Below, piece by piece: positions 8,255 to 57,206 of a stretch of DNA of 64,000 nucleotides (positions within the stretch are counted from its first letter, which is position 1; each line of letters opens with the position of its first letter). This DNA is from Albimonas pacifica (GTDB lineage Bacteria; Pseudomonadota; Alphaproteobacteria; Rhodobacterales; Rhodobacteraceae). The stretch lies in the NCBI RefSeq assembly GCF_900113695.1, contig NZ_FOQH01000015.1:1-64000 (forward strand), in the 5' to 3' direction. The notes under the pieces are model-generated. The model saw only the letters and a list, made by a program, of their open reading frames with translations, had not been told where the DNA came from and did no database searches. The position numbers and the translations under genes are program-made.

Positions 8255-9854
<1,600 letters not shown>

Positions 9855-9861
<7 letters not shown>

Positions 9862-9883
9862 CGTCCGCCGCGGGGCGGTGCAA
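9855..9883 (-). promoter_or_regulatory. tRNA-Arg promoter
   Basis: On the minus strand TTGCAC (9883-9878) and TATACA (9860-9855) are separated by 17 bases. The -10 box lies 11 bases ahead of the mature tRNA 5' end. The recombinase stop codon at 9859-9861 overlaps this -10 box. Confidence 0.62.
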
Positions 9884-9900
9884 CGCGCGATCTGCGGGGG

Positions 9901-10254
9901 TCAGCCCTTCGGGCGCGAGGCCTTCTCGGCCACGCCCGAGACGCCCTCGCGGCGCTCCAGCTCGGCCAGGACCTCGCCGAAGGGGACGTCGCGCGCGGCC
10001 AGCATCACCAGCAGGTGGTAGAGCGTGTCGGCGGCTTCGGACTTCAGCTCGGCGCGGTCGTTGGCGGCGGCGGCGATCACCGCCTCGACCGCCTCCTCGC
10101 CGAACTTCTGGGCGCACTTGCGCGGACCCTTGGCGAACAGCTTCGCGGTGTGGCTGCTCGCCGGATCGGCCCCCTTGCGCGAGCGGATCACGGCGTCGAG
10201 CCGCGCCAGCACCGACAGGTCCAGGGCAGGGGCGGAGACGGACGCTTTGGGCAT
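9901..10254 (-). CDS. hisE: Phosphoribosyl-ATP pyrophosphatase
   Basis: HisE removes pyrophosphate from phosphoribosyl-ATP in the second step of histidine biosynthesis. The 117-residue product has the MazG-like helical fold with the metal-binding [13 protein letters not shown] helix near residues 50-62 and the [15 protein letters not shown] helix near 68-82, a normal family length. The ATG at 10254 is used. It is the last gene of the minus-strand cluster, 32 bases after hisF, and sits directly next to the tRNA-Arg that anchors the mobile element. Confidence 0.95.
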
Positions 10255-10286
10255 GGCGGGGCTCCTCGCGGGCGCAGGCGGGCGGG

Positions 10287-11045
10287 TCACAGGCGCACGG
10301 GGATGCCGGCCGCGGCCATCGCCGCCTTCGCCTCCCCGATCGTGTGGTGGCCGAAGTGGAAGATCGAGGCGGCGAGCACCGCCGAGGCATGGCCCTCGGT
10401 CACGCCCTCGACCAGGTGCTCGAGCGAGCCGACGCCCCCCGAGGCGATCACGGGGATCGAGACGGCGTCGGCCACCGCGCGCGTCAGGGGCAGGTTGTAG
10501 CCCGCCCGCGTGCCGTCGCGGTCCATCGAGGTCAGCAGGATCTCGCCCGCGCCGCGCCGTTCCATATCGAGGGCGAATTCCACCGCGTCGAGGCCGGTGG
10601 CGGTGCGCCCGCCGTGGGTGAAGATCTCCCACCGGCCGGGGGCGACGGTCTTGGCGTCGATGGCGACCGTGATGCACTGGGCGCCGAATTTCTCGGCGGC
10701 GGCGTCGATCACCTCGGGGGTGTTCACGGCGGCGGTGTTGAAGCTGACCTTGTCGGCGCCGGCCAGCAGCAGGTTGCGCACGTCCTCGACCGTGCGCACG
10801 CCGCCGCCGATGGTGAGCGGCATGAAGCACTGCTCGGCGGTGCGCGCGGCGATGTCGAGGAGGGTGCCGCGGTTCTCGTGGCTGGCGGCGATGTCGAGGA
10901 AGCAAAGCTCGTCCGCGCCGGCGGCGTCGTAGGCGCGCGCGGCCTCCACCGGGTCGCCCGCGTCGACCAGGTCGACGAAGTTCACGCCCTTCACCACGCG
11001 GCCGCCGGCGACGTCGAGGCAGGGGATCACGCGGGTCTTGAGCAT
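10287..11045 (-). CDS. hisF: Imidazole glycerol phosphate synthase, cyclase subunit
   Basis: HisF is the (beta/alpha)8-barrel subunit that uses ammonia channelled from HisH to make imidazole glycerol phosphate and AICAR. The 252 residues begin [15 protein letters not shown], with catalytic Asp11. The second catalytic Asp is in VAIDAKT near residue 130. Phosphate-binding GGGVR and SGGVGS loops are present. Unlike the usual tight hisA-hisF order, a VPLPA-CTERM gene lies between hisA and hisF, so hisF-hisE may have their own promoter. Confidence 0.96.
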
Positions 11046-47021: not shown

Positions 47022-47137
47022 GGGGAGGCTCCGGGGGCAGGTCGGGTCGGCGCGGCCGCCCGGCCGCGCGCGGGGCGCGACAGGCGGCGCCCGTTCGCGA
47101 TAGCCTGCGCGGAGCGTGAGGGGAAGGAGAGATCGCG

Positions 47138-50100
47138 TTGGCCAGTCCGCCGCAACCGGAGCCCGAGGAGATCCTGCGCGCCGCCGTCGAGCGTCCCGGG
47201 GAGGGCACGCTGGGCGACCTCGCCCTCCAGGTCGACCGCGTGCTGGGGGTGCTGGAGAAGCTCGACGAGGCCGAGCTGCGCCGCAGCTACGCGACGCTGG
47301 CGCGCATCGTCGGCGGCGCCGACAAGGGCGAGGCGCCCGACGAGGGCGGCTCGCCGCTGCGCGCGCTCTCTGCGGTGCTGGAGCGGATGCGCATGGCCCC
47401 CGCCCGCCGCCCGCCGCCCGCCAGGTCCTCGTCCGAACCGACGGCGGAGGCGCCGCGCGCGCCTCGCAAGGCGCCCCGCGCCAAGACCGCCGCGCCGCGG
47501 GAGACGCGCGAGACGGCGCCGTCGGAGACGCCGCCCGAGACGACGAAGGCCGCCGCGCCCCCGGATACGGGGCGGTCCGCCGGGGCCCCCGAGACGAGCG
47601 GCTCCGCCGCGGGCCCCGAGACGAGCGGCTCCGCCGCGGCCCCGGAGACCGGTGCGGCGGACGCGCCTCCCGCCATCGACCTCGACCTCTGGTCCGATCT
47701 CCGCGCCAAGCTGCACGACGCGCTCGGCGTGGGCGACCTGCGCGTGGCGGGCCGGCAGCTCGTCATGTTGGGCACGCTGCTGGATTTGGCGGAGGAGTCC
47801 CCCGCCGCCGACGCGCGCACCCTCGCCCGCCTGCGGCGCGAGCGCGACGCGGCCGCCGAGGCGCTCGCCGCCGCCGAGGCCGAGGCGGAGTTTCCCAATC
47901 GCGCGCAGCCTGATCCCGCGGCGGACCCGCCGCCCGACCCCCGCGTGCGCCTGCTCGACGCCCCCGGCCGGGCCGTGGCGCTGCGCGATCTGGCGGAGGC
48001 GCGTGCGGGCGAGGGCGAGCCCCTCCTCGCCCCTCCGGCGCTCGACCTGCTCGAGCGCGCCTCGCGGCTGGCCGAGGCGCTGGAACTGCCGGCGCCCGGC
48101 GCTCCCGACCGCAGCCTCCTCGTCGTCACCCCCGCGGCCCTGCTGGCGGCGCTGCTGGCCGGCGAGCGGGAGGGCGGCGCCGTCGCCGGCCGCCTGCGGG
48201 AGTGGATCGCGGGCCGGCCCGGGGCCGAGGCCGCGCTCGCCCGCGCGACCCGGGCGCCCGAGCCGCCCCGCCGCGGGGGCGAGGCGGTGGCCGACGCGGC
48301 CACGCGCGCCCTGCTGGCGCGCGCGGCGGCGCTGGCGGGCGAGGTGCGCGGCGCCTCCACCGCGCCGGGGCGGGGGGTCCTGCTGGCCGCGCTCTGCCTG
48401 ACGCCGGGCGGGCGGCAGGCCTTCCTCGACCTCGGCCTCGGCGGAGACGATCCGCAGGGGTTCCTCGCGGAGCTGGCGACGGTCCACATCGACCTCCAGC
48501 TCGCCGTCGACGTCGCCCACGACCGGACCGACTGGGCGCGCTGGCTGGAGGCGCACCCGCTGCCGGACCCCGACACGCTGCTCGACGGGCTGAGGCTGCG
48601 CCAGCCCCTGCGCCTGTCGGTGCCCGACTACGCCGCCGACGACGTGGCGCGCCGGCGGGGGACGACGGGCTCGATGCTCGAGGGCGACCGGCTGGGGGTG
48701 GCGGCGGACGCGCGGGCGCTGGCGGACCTGATCTGCCTCGAGGCCGCGCGCCCGCCGCTCGCCATCGGGCTGTTCGGCCCCTGGGGCTCGGGCAAATCCA
48801 CCTTCATGCGCATGATCGAGGAGGCGGCCGAGGCCAACCGCGAGACCGCCCGGCGGATGCGCGAGGGGGGCGAGACGCCGCCCTTCGTCGAGAGCGTGGC
48901 GCATGTGTGGTTCAACGCCTGGCACTACCTCGACGCAAATCTCTGGGCCTCGCTGGTCAGCCACATCTTCCGGGAGCTGCACCGCCTGTCGCAGGGCCTC
49001 TCGGCGGAGGAGGCGGCGCGGATGGACTACCTGGTCCGCAAGCTCGCCTCCGCCGCCCAGGCCGAGACCGCGGCGCGCGAGGGGGTGCGCACCGCCGACG
49101 CCTCGGTGAAGCGGGCGCGGCGGCGGGTGGCGGCGGCGGACCGGCTGCGCGCCTGCCTGCGCCGCAAGCTCGCCGAGGCCGCGCCCCGCGCGCTCGACGA
49201 GCTGCTGGCCGAGGAGACCCGCCGCGGTCTCGCGGCGCTGCAGGCGGCCGGCGTCTCGGCCCCGCTGCAGAGCGTCGAACAGCTCCGGGACCTGCGGCGG
49301 GAGCTGTCGGGCCTGGGCGGGCGGCTGCGGCTGACGGGCGCGGCGATCCTGCGGGGCGGCGCGCGGACCTGGGGCGCGCTGGCGCTGGCGGCGGCGGCGC
49401 TCGCCGCGGGCGGGCTGGGGGCGGCCTGGCTGGGGCAGGGGGGCGCGGGGGCGCCCGCTTGGCTCGCGGCCTTCCTCGCCGAGGCCTCCGGCTGGCTGGG
49501 GGTCACGGGGGCGCTCGCCGCCGCCGTCCTGCCGCATCTGCGGCGCGCCAACGCCGCCATGGACGCGCTCGCCGCGGCCGAGGAGGAGGCGCGCGCCCGG
49601 CTCGCCGAGGCGGAGGCGGAGCGGCGACGGCTGGAGGCGGACCTCGCCCGGCTGGAGGCGGAGCGGCTGCGCGCGCAGGACGATCTCGACGCCCGCAGGC
49701 GCGAGCGGGAGCGGCTGGAGGCGATGCGCCGCGGCGAGCAGCCCGCCGAGCTCCTGGCCCAGTTCATCGAGGAGCGCGCCCGCGCCGAGGGCTACCGCAA
49801 GCACCTGGGCCTTCTCTCCCAGATCCGCGCGGATTTCGAGCTGATGGCCGACCTGCTGGCCCCGCGTACCCCCGCCGTGCGCGCGGACGCGGCGAAGCGG
49901 ATCGAGGCGGACCCCGCCGCGCTCCCCCATATCGGGCGCATCGTGCTCTACATCGACGACCTCGACCGCTGCCGGGACGAGCAGGTGGTGGAGGTGCTGG
50001 AGGCGATCCACCTGCTGCTGGCCTTCGACCTGTTCGTGGTGGTGGTGGGTGTGGACGCGCGCTGGGTCGAGGGGGCGCTGACGCGTTTCTACGCCCAGCA

Positions 50101-50932
50101 GCTCAGCCCCGGGGAGACCGCGGACGGCCGCCCGAGCGTGGCCGACTACCTCGAGAAGATCTTCCAGATCCCCTTCCGCCTGCGGCCGATGGAGCTGGGC
50201 GAGGGCGGCGGCTATTCCCGCCTCGTCGCCGAGCTGGTGGGGCCGGTGCAGGAGACCGGAACCGGGCTCGCCGACGCGATGCCCGACGCGCCCGCGCCGG
50301 GCCCGGCCGGGCCCGCGCCTGCGCCCGCCGAGGACGAGGGCCCCGCGCCGCTGCCCGCCATCGACCTCTCCGCGGTCTGGCCGGCGGAGGAGACGCCCGC
50401 CCAGGTGCTGGAGCGCGTGACCCTCACCCGCCCCGAGCTCGAGGCCATCGAGGCGCTGGGCCCCCTCGTCGGCCGCTCCCCGCGCACGGCCAAGCGGTTC
50501 GTGAACCTCTATCGGCTGTTGAGGTCGCGCAGGCGGGGGGAGGAGCTGGAGGCGTTCCTCGAAGGGCAGCAGGGTCATGCGGCGCCGTTCCGCGGCGCAC
50601 TGTTCTGGCTGGCGCTGGAGACGGGGCTCGACGCCCGGCAGTCCGACCTGCTTCGCGACGCGCTGTCCGGCGACCTGGTGTGGAGCTGGAACGATCTCGT
50701 CCAGGCGCGGAGCTCCGCGCTTCATGACGTACTGGATGACGCAGGGCCCCTCGCCGACGCCCGGATCGCGCTGCGGCGGCGCAAGGCGTTCTGGGACTCG
50801 ATCGAGGGGCTTGAGCGTGAGGGCGTCCTGGTCGAGGGGTTCCAGACCCTCGATGCGCTCTGGCCGGATGCGCGCGCCGAAATCGTCGCCGAGGCCTCGC
50901 GCTATTCCTTCCGCTTCGGCGGAGCGTTCTGA
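47138..50932 (+). CDS. KAP-family membrane P-loop NTPase, very large, with extra N-terminal half
   Basis: A TTG start with a GGAAGGAGA site gives 1264 residues. The NTPase core has Walker A FGPWGSGKSTFM near residues 546-557, the family motif HVWFNAWHY near 587, and Walker B VLYIDDLDRCRDEQVVEVLEAI near 935-956. Two membrane helices near 747-765 and 774-797 are inserted in the P-loop domain, the hallmark of KAP proteins, followed by a coiled coil at 801-865. Before it lies a 540-residue N-terminal half with a Pro/Thr repeat (150-180) and a region near 320-450 (LLVVTPAALLAALLAGE, GVLLAALCLTPGGRQAFLD) that resembles a Clp-N-type helical pair. KAP proteins include the phage-exclusion protein PifA; the function here is untested. 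It is monocistronic, between catabolic clusters. Confidence 0.85.
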   Translation: MASPPQPEPEEILRAAVERPGEGTLGDLALQVDRVLGVLEKLDEAELRRSYATLARIVGGADKGEAPDEGGSPLRALSAVLERMRMAPARRPPPARSSSEPTAEAPRAPRKAPRAKTAAPRETRETAPSETPPETTKAAAPPDTGRSAGAPETSGSAAGPETSGSAAAPETGAADAPPAIDLDLWSDLRAKLHDALGVGDLRVAGRQLVMLGTLLDLAEESPAADARTLARLRRERDAAAEALAAAEAEAEFPNRAQPDPAADPPPDPRVRLLDAPGRAVALRDLAEARAGEGEPLLAPPALDLLERASRLAEALELPAPGAPDRSLLVVTPAALLAALLAGEREGGAVAGRLREWIAGRPGAEAALARATRAPEPPRRGGEAVADAATRALLARAAALAGEVRGASTAPGRGVLLAALCLTPGGRQAFLDLGLGGDDPQGFLAELATVHIDLQLAVDVAHDRTDWARWLEAHPLPDPDTLLDGLRLRQPLRLSVPDYAADDVARRRGTTGSMLEGDRLGVAADARALADLICLEAARPPLAIGLFGPWGSGKSTFMRMIEEAAEANRETARRMREGGETPPFVESVAHVWFNAWHYLDANLWASLVSHIFRELHRLSQGLSAEEAARMDYLVRKLASAAQAETAAREGVRTADASVKRARRRVAAADRLRACLRRKLAEAAPRALDELLAEETRRGLAALQAAGVSAPLQSVEQLRDLRRELSGLGGRLRLTGAAILRGGARTWGALALAAAALAAGGLGAAWLGQGGAGAPAWLAAFLAEASGWLGVTGALAAAVLPHLRRANAAMDALAAAEEEARARLAEAEAERRRLEADLARLEAERLRAQDDLDARRRERERLEAMRRGEQPAELLAQFIEERARAEGYRKHLGLLSQIRADFELMADLLAPRTPAVRADAAKRIEADPAALPHIGRIVLYIDDLDRCRDEQVVEVLEAIHLLLAFDLFVVVVGVDARWVEGALTRFYAQQLSPGETADGRPSVADYLEKIFQIPFRLRPMELGEGGGYSRLVAELVGPVQETGTGLADAMPDAPAPGPAGPAPAPAEDEGPAPLPAIDLSAVWPAEETPAQVLERVTLTRPELEAIEALGPLVGRSPRTAKRFVNLYRLLRSRRRGEELEAFLEGQQGHAAPFRGALFWLALETGLDARQSDLLRDALSGDLVWSWNDLVQARSSALHDVLDDAGPLADARIALRRRKAFWDSIEGLEREGVLVEGFQTLDALWPDARAEIVAEASRYSFRFGGAF
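47587..47640 (+). repeat. Tandem 27-base repeat inside the KAP gene
   Basis: There are two near-identical 27-base units (47587-47613 and 47614-47640, differing by one base), with a partial third. Each encodes PETSGSAAG in the linker of the N-terminal half. In-frame copy-number change would lengthen the linker without breaking the protein. Confidence 0.7.
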
Positions 50933-54388: not shown

Positions 54389-54525
54389 CGGCCCAGCGCC
54401 CGCCCTGCGCGCGGCTCGAGGCTGGACCTCGGCGCGCGCGCAGGGCAGCTTCGCCTCCTTGGATTCGGTCCCGGTCGCCGCCCGTCGCAGCCGGTCCGCC
54501 GATCCCCGGTCGGAGGCGACGCCCC

Positions 54526-57206
54526 TTGTCCCGCGTCTACATCGGCGGAAAGTTGAGACCCCCTTCGATCACGTCGGACCACCTGTCGCGCCGGCGGCTG
54601 GCGGAGCGGTTCCTGGCCGCCCCCGGCGCCCGCCTGACGGTGCTGCGCGCCCCCTCGGGCTTCGGCAAGACCATGCTGATGGCCGAGTGTCGCGAGGCGC
54701 TGGCCGCCCAGGGGCTGCGCACCGCCTGGCTCGCCCTCGACAACGCCGACAACGACGCCTCCCGTTTCGCCGCCGGCCTGGTGCAGGCGCTGGCCGAGCT
54801 CGGCGTCGAGGCGCCCGAGGGCGAGGGGGCCGAGGGCTGGCTCGCGCTGCTCGACCGGCTGGCGCGCCACGGGTCGGCCTTCGCCCTCTTCCTCGACGAT
54901 TTCGAGTTCATCTCCGACGACGCGGTGCTGTCGCTGGTGCGCGAACTGATCGGCGCCTTCCCGCCCGGCGCGCGGCTGGTCGTCGGCTCCCGCACGCCGC
55001 CCGACCTCGGCCTCGGCCGCCTGCGCGCGCAGGGCCTGCTGCAGGAGTTCGACGCCGGCGACCTGCGCTTTTCCGGCCCCGAGACGGCGGAGTTCCTGAC
55101 CCGCGCCCGCGGCCTGCGGCTGGCGGCCGAGGATCTCGCCCGCCTGCAGGACAAGACCGAGGGCTGGCCCGCCGCCGTGCGCCTCGCCTCCATCGCGCTG
55201 GAGCGGCAGGGGGAGGGGTCGGACTTCGTCGCCCGCTTCTCCGGCTCCGACGGGGCGGTGGCGGAGTATCTGGCCGAGGACGTGCTCGCCGCCCAGCCGG
55301 CGGAGCGGGTGCGCTTCCTGCTGCGAACCTCGATCCTGCGCCGGCTGGACCCGGGCCTGTGCGACGCGTTGCACCCGCCCGGCGGTTCGGCCGCGATCCT
55401 CGAGGCGCTGGCGGCGGGCAACGTGCTGCTGACGCCCGACGACGGGGCGTTCCGCTACCATTCGCTCTTCGCTTCGTTCTTGCGCGCCCAGCTCGCCCGC
55501 CGGATGCCGGAGGAGCTGCCGGACCTGCACCGCGCCGCCGCGCGCTGGTATCTCGCGCAAGGCCGCCCCGCGCCCGCCATCGACCACGCCATCGAGGGGG
55601 GCGACGCCGCCTTCGCCGCCGACCTGCTGGGCAGGCACGCGCGCGGCTTCCTCGAGCAGGGGCGGATGCGGCTGCTGACCCGCTGGTTCGACGCGCTCGA
55701 CCCCGCGGTCTTCGCCGGGCGGCCGGAGCTTCAGCTGGTGCGCGCCTGGGCGCTGTGCTTCACCCGCGGCCCCAGGCGACGGGGGAGCTGCTGGACGCGA
55801 CCGGGGTCGAGGCCGACCCTCATCCCCAGATCGCCGCCGAGGCGCGCGCCGCGCGCATCCTGGTGCTGAGCATCTCCGACGACTACCCCGCCGCCGCGAA
55901 GCTCGCGCGCGCCGCGCTGGAGGGGCCGCGGCTGGAAAGCCGCTACGCCGCCGCGTCGCTGGCGAACTCGCTGGCCACGGTGTTCCTCGGCGTGGACGCC
56001 TTCGACGACGCCCGCCGCGCCCTGCTCGACGCGCGGCGCGAGGTGGGGGGCACCGCCGACCAGGCCGGGTTCAACGCCCTTTTCGCCGACGCGACCGAGG
56101 GGATCATCGACTGGCTGGAGGGGCGGCTGCGCGACGCCGGCGCCCGCTTCCGCCTGGCGCTGGCCGCCGGGCGCGACGACCCGCTCAGCCGCAACGGGGG
56201 CAACGCCTGGGCGGCGCTGCTGCACGCGACCTCGCTTTACGAGCGCAACGACCTGCGCCGGGCGGCGCATCTCTTCCACCTGCACCTGCCGACGGCGCGG
56301 GACCTCGGCCTGGTCGATCACATGATCAACGGCCATGTCGTGCTGTCGCGCATCGCCGACGGCGACGGCGACGTCGAGACCGCGATGGGCCTGCTGGGAG
56401 AGCTGGAGCACCTGGCCGAGCGCCGGGCGCTGCCGCGCGTCGCCGCCTCCGCCCGGCTGGAGCGGGCGCGCCAGCTTGCGGGGCGGGGGCATCTCGACGC
56501 CGCGCGCGAGCAGCTCGAGCGCGCCGAGGACGTCGAGGTCTGGGCCCGCGTCGCTGCCCTGCGCCTGCGCGCCAACGACACCGAGTACATCGAGGTCGGC
56601 CGCGTGCGCCAGGCGCTGCACGAGGGCCGCCCTGCCGAGGCGCTGCCGATCCTGCGCCGCGAGATCGCCGCCGCCGCCGCCTCGGGCCGTCACCGCCGCG
56701 CCCTGCACCTGCGCCTGCTGGCGGGCGCCGCCCATCACGCCGGGGGCGACTACGAGACCGCCGCCGCCTGGCTGGAGCGTCCGCTGGCCGACGCCGCGCG
56801 CGAGGGCGCCATGCGCATGATCCTCGACGAGGGGGAGCCGCTGGCCGAGGCGATCCGCGCGGTGGCCGAGCGCCATGCCGCCCACGGCGCCGGCGCCGCC
56901 GCCCGCGACCCGCATTTCCGCGCCTGGCTCGAGGACCTGACCGCCGCCATGGCTCCCCCGCGCCGCGCCGCGCCCGAGGTCGCCGGCGAGACCCTTCTCT
57001 CCGCCCCGATCGAGGCGCTGACCCGCAAGGAGCGCGAGGTGCTGCGCCTGCTGGCCGAGGGGCTGCCGAACGCGACGATCGCCGCGCGGCTCGGGGTGTC
57101 GGACAGCACGGTGCGCACGCACCTGCGCTCGATCAACTCCAAGCTCGACGCGCGCAACCGCACCCAGGCGGTGGCGGTGGCGCGGCGGATGGGGGTGCTG
57201 GCCTGA
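54526..57206 (+). pseudogene. MalT/LAL-type LuxR-family ATP-dependent regulator, one-base frameshift
   Basis: An intact gene would give about 893 residues in the MalT/LAL order: N-terminal start GGKLRPP, Walker A APSGFGKTMLM near residues 40-50, Walker B FALFLDDFEF near 119-128, helical regulatory repeats, and a C-terminal LuxR helix-turn-helix (ALTRKEREVLRLLAEGLPNAT near 57018-57080). Frame 1 runs from TTG 54526 to about 55773; the rest continues in another frame. The break lies in the GGCCCC run at 55768-55773, where one extra C would restore a continuous protein. Without correction, the first frame stops at 55869 and the DNA-binding domain is lost. It sits between two TRAP/tartrate operons, which it may regulate. 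Sequencing error, phase variation and true decay are all possible. Confidence 0.85.

What the first reader, a model, noticed from the sequence alone, without database searches (positions are those of the whole stretch)
47138..50932. Giant KAP NTPase with a Clp-N-like N-terminal half
At 1264 residues it is long for the KAP family. The NTPase has the inserted membrane hairpin typical of phage-exclusion relatives, but is preceded by about 540 residues including a possible Clp-N-like region and a repetitive linker. Alone between metabolic clusters, it is a good candidate for a single-gene defence or membrane-signalling protein.
Basis: partly seen in the sequence, partly recalled or inferred. Interest (0 to 1): 0.62.

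Follow-up and report, generated by a model that had tools for sequence, protein, structure and literature searches.

The report
KAP membrane ATPase with Clp-N module
This gene encodes a large membrane-associated ATPase of a family used by bacteria against viruses, joined to a fast-changing module related to the substrate-binding part of Clp chaperones; it is probably a one-gene sensor and switch, though its function is untested.

Summary
The ORF is real: 47138-50932 (+), 1264 aa, TTG start behind AAGGAGAG. Taken alone, this protein does not reach significance by Pfam or by a Clp-N profile. The pairing recurs: a Clp-N profile without KAP rows hits 10 of 80 N-termini at E<0.01, reversed 0 of 80. 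Other relatives carry TIR, trypsin+SLOG, CHAT, WD40, kinase or EVE modules, the style of conflict systems. The gene keeps its place in three Albimonas genomes and has no recurrent partner gene, yet matches strongly in only 2 of 198 genomes of its family. The Clp-N-like region diverges fastest (42% identity; NTPase 85%). Best reading: a stand-alone membrane sensor-switch, probably anti-phage; untested. New variant of a known kind.

The parts
47124..47131 (+). AAGGAGAG Shine-Dalgarno-like motif before the TTG start
   Evidence: Read directly; same motif before a GTG start in Albimonas sp. CAU 1670
47138..50932 (+). CDS, 1264-aa KAP NTPase with Clp-N-like N-terminal half
   Evidence: ORF; PF07693 E 5.5e-28
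47138..47395 (+). Residues 1-86: predicted helical segment, unassigned
   Evidence: AlphaFold helices between 9 and 86, pLDDT 72-91 by block; 64% identical to L002, no counterpart aligned in L003
47405..47656 (+). Residues 90-173: disordered Ala/Pro/Thr/Glu linker with 27-bp tandem repeat
   Evidence: pLDDT under 50 nearly throughout; TRF 47550-47649, 3.7 copies
47681..47890 (+). Residues 182-251: predicted three-helix segment, unassigned
   Evidence: AlphaFold, pLDDT 83-92 by block to 250; matches unrelated helical bundles
47930..48592 (+). Residues 265-485: Clp-N-like double-repeat helical domain
   Evidence: Family profile against true Clp-N, hhalign E 7.1e-6 with failing reversed and shuffled controls; first five PDB profile hits are Clp N-domains, three of them ClpA; structural Z up to 11.5
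48776..48799 (+). Walker A, GPWGSGKS (residues 547-554)
   Evidence: G, WG and GK columns invariant in the 38 aligned proteins
49004..49177 (+). Residues 623-680: first long helix of the inserted stalk
   Evidence: AlphaFold
49370..49528 (+). Residues 745-797: membrane segment(s) of the insertion
   Evidence: Hydropathy peaks 1.84 (747-765) and 1.38 (779-797); model confidence low here
49535..49732 (+). Residues 800-865: return helix of the stalk
   Evidence: AlphaFold helix 774-865
49943..49972 (+). Walker B, VLYIDDLDRC (residues 936-945)
   Evidence: IDDLDRC invariant in the 38 aligned proteins
50144..50167 (+). DYLEKIFQ motif (residues 1003-1010)
   Evidence: Invariant in the 38 aligned proteins
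50477..50506 (+). SPRTAKRFVN motif (residues 1114-1123), sensor-2-like arginine region
   Evidence: P, R, R and N invariant in the 38 aligned proteins; sensor-2 role inferred

Best explanation
A stand-alone, membrane-anchored AAA+/STAND-like switch, most likely an anti-phage (conflict) protein. Shown by sequence and model: a KAP ATPase core whose Walker A and B halves are separated by an insertion with membrane segment(s); before it a Clp-N-like double-repeat domain; before that a disordered linker and short helical parts. Inferred: the Clp-N-like domain is the recognition end. As in Clp/Hsp100 proteins it would bind a peptide, tail or adaptor, here from an invader or from a damaged host protein. 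Binding would be transmitted to the KAP ATPase, which probably assembles as a ring like RdrA or QatA. The ATP-driven change would act through the stalk and membrane insertion to stop the infected cell, for example by depolarisation as suggested for PifA. Since no catalytic effector domain is recognised in this protein, unlike relatives with TIR, protease or kinase modules, the membrane insertion is the likeliest output.
For: KAP domain and motifs. Clp-N-like homology with controls. KAP core model resembles RADAR RdrA (Z 16.7 over 347 residues), ORC/Cdc6 (16.7 over 261) and NLR resistosomes (12.8-14.0). Conflict-type modules in the same N-terminal place: EVE (6 of 76), kinase 2, TIR_2 2, WD40, trypsin plus SLOG, CHAT. 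No recurrent partner gene. Viral-contig relative about 2.5 kb from a portal gene, with a Clp-N-like region by the KAP-derived profile (E 1.7e-10). Clp-N-like part diverges faster than the NTPase within the gene; N-terminus less conserved in 16 of 18 measured pairs, which share members. Literature passages: earlier work suggested that PifA senses T7 proteins and depolarises the membrane (PMC8594841); Tmn is a KAP defence protein with two transmembrane domains (PMC11846954).
Against: No experiment. In Albimonas the gene sits stably among metabolic genes. The PADLOC neighbour survey was not informative. Fast N-terminal divergence may be relaxed constraint: pN/pS is near 1, not above, and against L003 the insertion also reaches 0.93. 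By a true Clp-N profile this protein alone scores only E 0.7 and the viral-contig relative E 10. RdrA resemblance is shared with many AAA+ proteins. The stalk and membrane part is modelled at low confidence. QatA is dispensable for Qat defence against some phages (PMC13279940), and the paper that tested PifA found a narrow range and raised the possibility that it did not evolve for immunity (PMC8594841).
Confidence: 0.5

Rival explanations
1. A membrane-organising or stress-signalling ATPase with a host function, in the manner of Kidins220 as a membrane scaffold (recalled), using the Clp-N-like domain to bind host proteins.
For: Present in the three Albimonas genomes seen, upstream-collinear in all; NTPase half constrained against L002 (pN/pS 0.38-0.45; 0.57-0.93 against L003); no adjacent defence gene among eight ORFs scanned.
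Against: Strong match in only 2 of 198 genomes of the family; relatives combine with conflict modules and occur in a viral contig; Clp-N-like part 42% and 39% identical to its Albimonas homologues.
Confidence: 0.25
2. A Clp-like protein-remodelling machine: the Clp-N-like domain captures substrates and a KAP ring at the membrane unfolds or extracts them.
For: Clp-N is a substrate or adaptor platform in ClpA/B/C (recalled); AAA+-like ring relatives.
Against: No Clp-type AAA core over its cut-off in Pfam; pore loops and a ClpP-binding loop were not looked for; KAP belongs to another branch of P-loop NTPases (recalled); 42% identity of the domain between close species would be unusual for a housekeeping substrate binder.
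Confidence: 0.12
3. A decayed or domesticated element: the NTPase is kept by chance and the N-terminal half is drifting.
For: pN/pS 0.91-0.96 in the Clp-N-like region; linker expansion with tandem repeat.
Against: Open frame in all three Albimonas genomes seen and motifs kept; predicted well-folded N-terminal domain; start and ribosome-binding motif conserved with L002.
Confidence: 0.08

Closest known systems
Tmn (KAP defence system, E. coli; PMC11846954, passages seen)
   Same: KAP NTPase with two transmembrane domains; mechanism called unexplored there
   Different: No Tmn sequence or model could be compared here; whether Tmn has a Clp-N-like half is unknown to me
PifA of the F plasmid (PADLOC PDLC02361; PMC8594841, passages seen)
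   Same: KAP-type P-loop motifs; weak profile match, best over residues 515-569
   Different: Only 43.4 bits in total; a Clp-N-like half in PifA was not looked for
QatA (NF041923; PMC13279940, passages seen)
   Same: KAP NTPase of an anti-phage operon; best NCBIfam match (87.7 bits)
   Different: Far under the cut-off of 600; no QatB, QatC or QatD among eight neighbouring ORFs scanned with Pfam; QatA's extra domain is C-terminal
RdrA of RADAR
   Same: Structural resemblance of the ATPase core, Z 16.7 over 347 residues
   Different: Resemblance no higher in Z than that of ORC/Cdc6; no deaminase among the eight neighbouring ORFs scanned
Clp/Hsp100 N-domains (ClpA, ClpB, ClpC, ClpV, Hsp104)
   Same: Double Clp-N repeat, by family profile and fold
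   Different: Fused to KAP rather than to a Clp AAA+ core; this protein gives no Pfam Clp_N match
ClpN repeats fused to vWA in MoxR-vWA FtsH ternary conflict systems (PMC7159879, passage seen)
   Same: Clp-N used as a module of a conflict-system protein
   Different: Different NTPase partner, multi-gene system, described as rare variants
KAP displacing STAND in bDLD3/EAD10 counter-invader systems (PMC8195603, passage seen)
   Same: KAP used as the modular NTPase of a counter-invader system
   Different: Other adaptor domains; 'Clp-N' does not occur in that main text

Membership tests
KAP P-loop NTPase family (PF07693) | Score over the curated cut-off | tested here: met
   98.5 bits against 20
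KAP P-loop NTPase family (PF07693) | Walker A and Walker B motifs intact | tested here: met
   GPWGSGKS and VLYIDDLDRC; core columns invariant in the 38 aligned proteins
KAP P-loop NTPase family (PF07693) | Transmembrane segments inserted between Walker A and Walker B | tested here: met
   One clear peak (1.84) and one weaker (1.38) in this protein; 78 of 78 proteins with both motifs, this one included, have at least one peak of 1.6
Clp_N (PF02861) | Pfam cut-off reached by this protein | tested here: not met
   No match up to E 10; the own-genome PF02861 search finds three places in two other genes. One relative, L022, passes the cut-off, 20.9 against 20.7 bits
Clp_N (PF02861) | Significant match of this protein alone to a true Clp-N profile | tested here: not met
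   E 0.7, rank 31 of 80; L003 E 0.089, L002 E 3.2. The three Albimonas rows alone by hhalign: E 0.0076, probability 5%
Clp_N (homology at family level) | Profile alignment over both repeats in register | tested here: met
   20-row alignment: hhalign score 42.75, E 7.1e-6, probability 84%; reversed 13.8; 40 column shuffles at most 11.1; without Albimonas rows E 1.3e-5
Clp_N (homology at family level) | Clp N-domain fold | tested here: met
   44 of 50 VIA-align rows are Clp/Hsp100-type N-domains or relatives by title (SMAX1 and three malarial entries placed by recall), Z 7.9-11.5; Foldseek ranks the Hsp104 N-domain first but only at E 0.6, none under 0.001
QatA (qatABCD) | NCBIfam equivalog cut-off | tested here: not met
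   87.7 bits against 600
QatA (qatABCD) | qatB, qatC and qatD beside the gene | tested here: not met
   Eight neighbouring ORFs by Pfam: SBP_bac_5, LysR, FAA hydrolase, DctQ, DctM, MOFRL, an AAA match and one without a match
PifA | PADLOC profile match over the protein | tested here: inconclusive
   E 4.5e-12, best stretch residues 515-569 only; no cut-off given
Tmn | Similarity to Tmn sequences | not testable with these tools
   No Tmn sequence or named model came up; accessions quoted in the paper were not looked up
Anti-phage defence system | Protection from phage in vivo | not testable with these tools
   Bench assay needed
Anti-phage defence system | Association with defence or mobile genes | tested here: inconclusive
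   One viral-contig relative near a portal gene, HsdR beside L015; no recurrent neighbour; PADLOC neighbour survey uninformative

The most novel reading that the evidence does not exclude
Clp-N-like plus KAP is the recurring core of an undescribed class of one-gene membrane immune receptors. An unfoldase-type peptide-binding domain, diversified by an arms race, recognises phage proteins and gates an ATPase ring at the inner membrane. Extra N-terminal modules (TIR, protease, kinase, nucleotide sensor, modified-base reader) are plugged in front of it as effector or second sensor.
Probability: 0.25. Interest if true: 0.75.

Novelty: new variant of a known kind. Interest (0 to 1): 0.52.

Why it matters
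How KAP NTPases such as Tmn detect phages and what they do at the membrane is unresolved in the passages read. A subfamily in which the NTPase is coupled to a recognisable peptide-binding module, and in which that module diverges faster than the rest, offers a concrete hypothesis for the sensing end: domain swaps between the three Albimonas homologues should move phage specificity. It would also extend Clp-N from chaperones to a membrane immune switch.

Tried and rejected
Considered and rejected. (1) QatA orthologue: score far under the cut-off and no qat genes among eight ORFs scanned. (2) Chance Clp-N resemblance of an Ala-rich helical region: the family alignment scores 42.75 where reversed gives 13.8 and the best of 40 shuffles 11.1; a true Clp-N profile without KAP rows hits 10 of 80 N-termini at E<0.01 against 0 of 80 reversed. 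The window protein is not among those 10 (E 0.7), so the case rests on its relatives and its fold. (3) A hidden partner gene: no recurrent neighbour. Clp-N as a separate neighbouring gene: of 137 neighbours the best scores E 0.071, reversed 0.099, with the KAP-derived profile, and 0.58 against 0.052 reversed with the true one. (4) Recent horizontal arrival in this genome: made unlikely by synteny in three Albimonas genomes.

Led nowhere or weak. PADLOC on 137 nearest ORFs (of 142 eligible) and 137 distant ones (of 197): 139 families against 26 at E<=1e-8, but no family with more than 2 members in the 25 shown of either set, and the near list is filled by overlapping GajB models matched by the same number of members (2); my longest-ORF caller also picked wrong-frame ORFs in GC-rich loci, so no enrichment is claimed. 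Promoter and terminator scan: nothing. PDB search with the single sequence: nothing relevant. A Tmn comparison could not be made. No solved KAP structure was named in the fold lists. In one search unrelated bundles reach Z 10.3 on the neighbouring three-helix segment (residues 166-261), so Z alone does not decide. The original KAP paper and the 2020 defence screen are not held. Nine paper searches listed no paper that I could see to pair Clp-N with KAP; this was judged from titles, counts and abstract starts of capped lists, and covers open-licence PMC papers only.

Errors found and corrected. One search took the wrong frame for L002 and L018 (seen). L018 has an in-frame stop; its N-terminal piece is still in A1 and among the 80 N-termini, and it is absent from the motif, rate and tree counts. 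L037 failed my Walker pattern. The LysR rows are in a wrong frame and are discarded. L002 was entered four residues short. One search failed on a frame error and was redone. The dctP-like reference gave no match; its frame or start may be wrong.
Full report
Observation. AAGGAGAG lies six bases upstream, and the same motif and start region recur before GTG in Albimonas sp. CAU 1670, L002. The genome (68 contigs, 6.02 Mb; genus Albimonas by inference) has this single KAP match at E<=0.001.

NTPase half. Pfam gives KAP_NTPase at 98.5 bits. QatA (NCBIfam 87.7 bits against a cut-off of 600) and PADLOC QatA, PDC-S20 and PifA follow as distant relatives. In the 38 aligned proteins, this one included, the core of GxWGxGK, IDDLDRC, DYLEKIFQ and PR...R..N is invariant. 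Between Walker A and B lie about 390 residues. Of 80 proteins, 78 had both motifs by my patterns; all 78 have at least one hydrophobic peak of 1.6 or more there and 36 have two or more; this protein has one strong (1.84) and one below that line (1.38). AlphaFold of residues 251-1264 (mean pLDDT 78) draws the insertion as a long antiparallel helical stalk with the membrane segments between its arms, at low confidence there. Foldseek finds nothing under E 0.001; its first two hits are RdrA chains of RADAR at E 0.017-0.022. VIA-align gives RdrA Z 16.7 over 347 residues, ORC/Cdc6 Z 16.7 over 261, and NLR resistosomes 12.8-14.0. The core is thus AAA+/STAND-like, but RdrA is not singled out.

Clp-N-like half. 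Pfam finds no Clp_N in this protein up to E 10, the own-genome PF02861 search sees only three places in two other genes, and by a true Clp-N profile this protein alone scores E 0.7, rank 31 of 80. Four lines at family level find it. (a) A profile of nine proteins over the region puts five Clp N-domains first among 177,635 PDB sequences, each only at E 0.07-0.21 and three of them near-copies of E. coli ClpA. (b) Among ten relatives scanned, L022 passes the Pfam Clp_N cut-off (20.9 against 20.7) and two others score below it. (c) hhalign of 20 proteins with 13 true Clp N-domains gives E 7.1e-6 over both repeats in register; reversed alignment 13.8, best of 40 shuffles 11.1, real 42.75; without the three Albimonas rows E 1.3e-5, with those three alone only E 0.0076. 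(d) The AlphaFold model of residues 1-555 (22-row alignment, mean pLDDT 73) places Clp-type N-domains in 8 of Foldseek's first 12 rows (two of them, SMAX1 and a malarial chaperone, by recall), rank 1 Hsp104 but at E 0.6. VIA-align lists 44 of 50 rows as Clp/Hsp100-type N-domains or relatives over model residues about 285-465, best Z 11.5, rmsd 4.3, 156 residues. The tool warns that Z under 13 can be generic for helical folds, and unrelated bundles reach 10.3 on the neighbouring three-helix segment in the same list; the uniformity of the matches at 285-465 and lines a-c argue against that here.

How common the pairing is. The true Clp-N profile, which has no KAP rows, hits 10 of 80 N-termini at E<0.01 and 22 at E<0.1, against 0 and 0 of 80 reversed. 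The KAP-derived profile hits 40 of 80 at E<0.01 (20 of them its training rows) against 0 reversed. Other modules in the same N-terminal place, at E<=0.01 and from a list cut at 25 of 75 families: EVE 6, GcrA 3, kinase 2, TIR_2 2 of 76; in ten members looked at singly, L071 trypsin plus SLOG, L080 CHAT, L032 WD40, L064 TIR_2 just under its cut-off; L028 TIR with a Clp-N-like region behind it. The 79 loci were found by short conserved peptides and come from the best 80 of 131 confirmed stretches, so they are not an unbiased census.

Context and descent. DNA and gene order from about 39.5 to 61 kb are collinear with L002. Upstream genes are also collinear in A. donghaensis, L003, where the TRAP genes that follow here were not found in the stretch held and a GntR gene follows instead. 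Neighbours are a peptide-binding protein, LysR, FAA hydrolase, DctQ, DctM and a MOFRL protein. In 198 genomes of the same bacterial family, 37 have some KAP match; with the NTPase part of this protein as query 12 match at E<=0.001, but only this genome and G081 (E 1.1e-28) strongly over both halves. G081's N-terminus scores only weakly for Clp-N (E about 0.04 with either profile). In the tree of 78 NTPase parts the Albimonas proteins sit in a supported 14-row clade of alphaproteobacteria plus one unclassified proteobacterial MAG; the tree needs 24 phylum changes where 12 is the least possible, which is no proof of transfer. Among viral contigs 17 relatives were found. The best, L145, lies about 2.5 kb from a portal gene (phrog_12, E 1.2e-87); its N-terminus scores E 1.7e-10 with the KAP-derived profile (reversed 0.04) but only E 10 with the true Clp-N profile. 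Phage records gave none, plasmids 7.

Rates. Against L002: Clp-N-like region 42% identity, pN/pS 0.96; NTPase first part 85%, 0.38; insertion 80%, 0.44; second part 78%, 0.45; C-terminus 61%, 0.49; five neighbours 87-94%, 0.15-0.36. Against L003 the contrast is smaller: Clp-N-like 39%, 0.91; NTPase parts 57% (0.73) and 69% (0.57); insertion 50% (0.93); three neighbours 71-87%, 0.31-0.53 (LysR rows discarded as wrong-frame). In 16 of 18 measurable pairs of relatives (of 23 pairs), which share members, the N-terminus is less conserved than the NTPase, for example 57% against 95% in Myxococcus; two pairs show no difference. These are descriptive ratios in DNA of 74-80% GC and do not tell positive from relaxed selection.

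Mechanism. Shown: architecture, homologies, conservation. Inferred: peptide or adaptor binding by the Clp-N-like domain, ring assembly (QatA was reported as heptamer or octamer, passage of PMC13279940), and a membrane output (earlier work suggested depolarisation by PifA; the same paper doubts that PifA evolved for immunity; passages of PMC8594841). Passages of PMC11846954 describe Tmn as a KAP protein with two transmembrane domains whose mechanism is unexplored. Passages of PMC7159879 and PMC8195603 report ClpN repeats in one conflict system and KAP replacing STAND in another; PMC10907252 and PMC10853773 mention KAP among conflict or defence genes (passages). Nine paper searches listed no Clp-N plus KAP pairing that I could see (capped lists, open-licence papers). 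That Clp-N binds substrates and adaptors is recalled.

Verdict. The defence interpretation is plausible but undemonstrated. A new variant of a known kind.

Noticed in passing
L145:4279-7203 and 9680-10924: Viral contig (IMG/VR) with a KAP gene about 2.5 kb upstream of a portal gene; its N-terminus is Clp-N-like by the KAP-derived profile only. A probable prophage-borne member.
   Followed up: partly
L071:6099-9926: KAP protein with trypsin-like peptidase and SLOG nucleotide-sensor domains in front (Polyangiaceae MAG).
   Followed up: partly
L080:8201-12250: KAP protein with a CHAT (caspase-like) domain in front and a Clp-N-like signal (Acidobacteriota MAG).
   Followed up: partly
L023, L026, L049: Three Myxococcus KAP proteins with NTPase parts 92-95% identical but N-termini only 56-57% identical, each preceded by a member of one family of about 914 aa.
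   Followed up: partly
L063:8081-9727: KAP protein with a short N-terminus preceded by a PLD-like gene; L024 has a PD-(D/E)XK gene and L015 an HsdR gene as nearest upstream ORF.
   Followed up: no
window 54459-57206: MalT/LuxR-type regulator region read in two overlapping frames (54526-55869 with AAA matches under their cut-offs, and 54459-57206), which may mean a frameshift in the gene or the assembly.
   Followed up: no
L018:9401-12112: EVE-like (by eye) plus KAP gene (Phycisphaeraceae MAG) interrupted by one in-frame stop.
   Followed up: no
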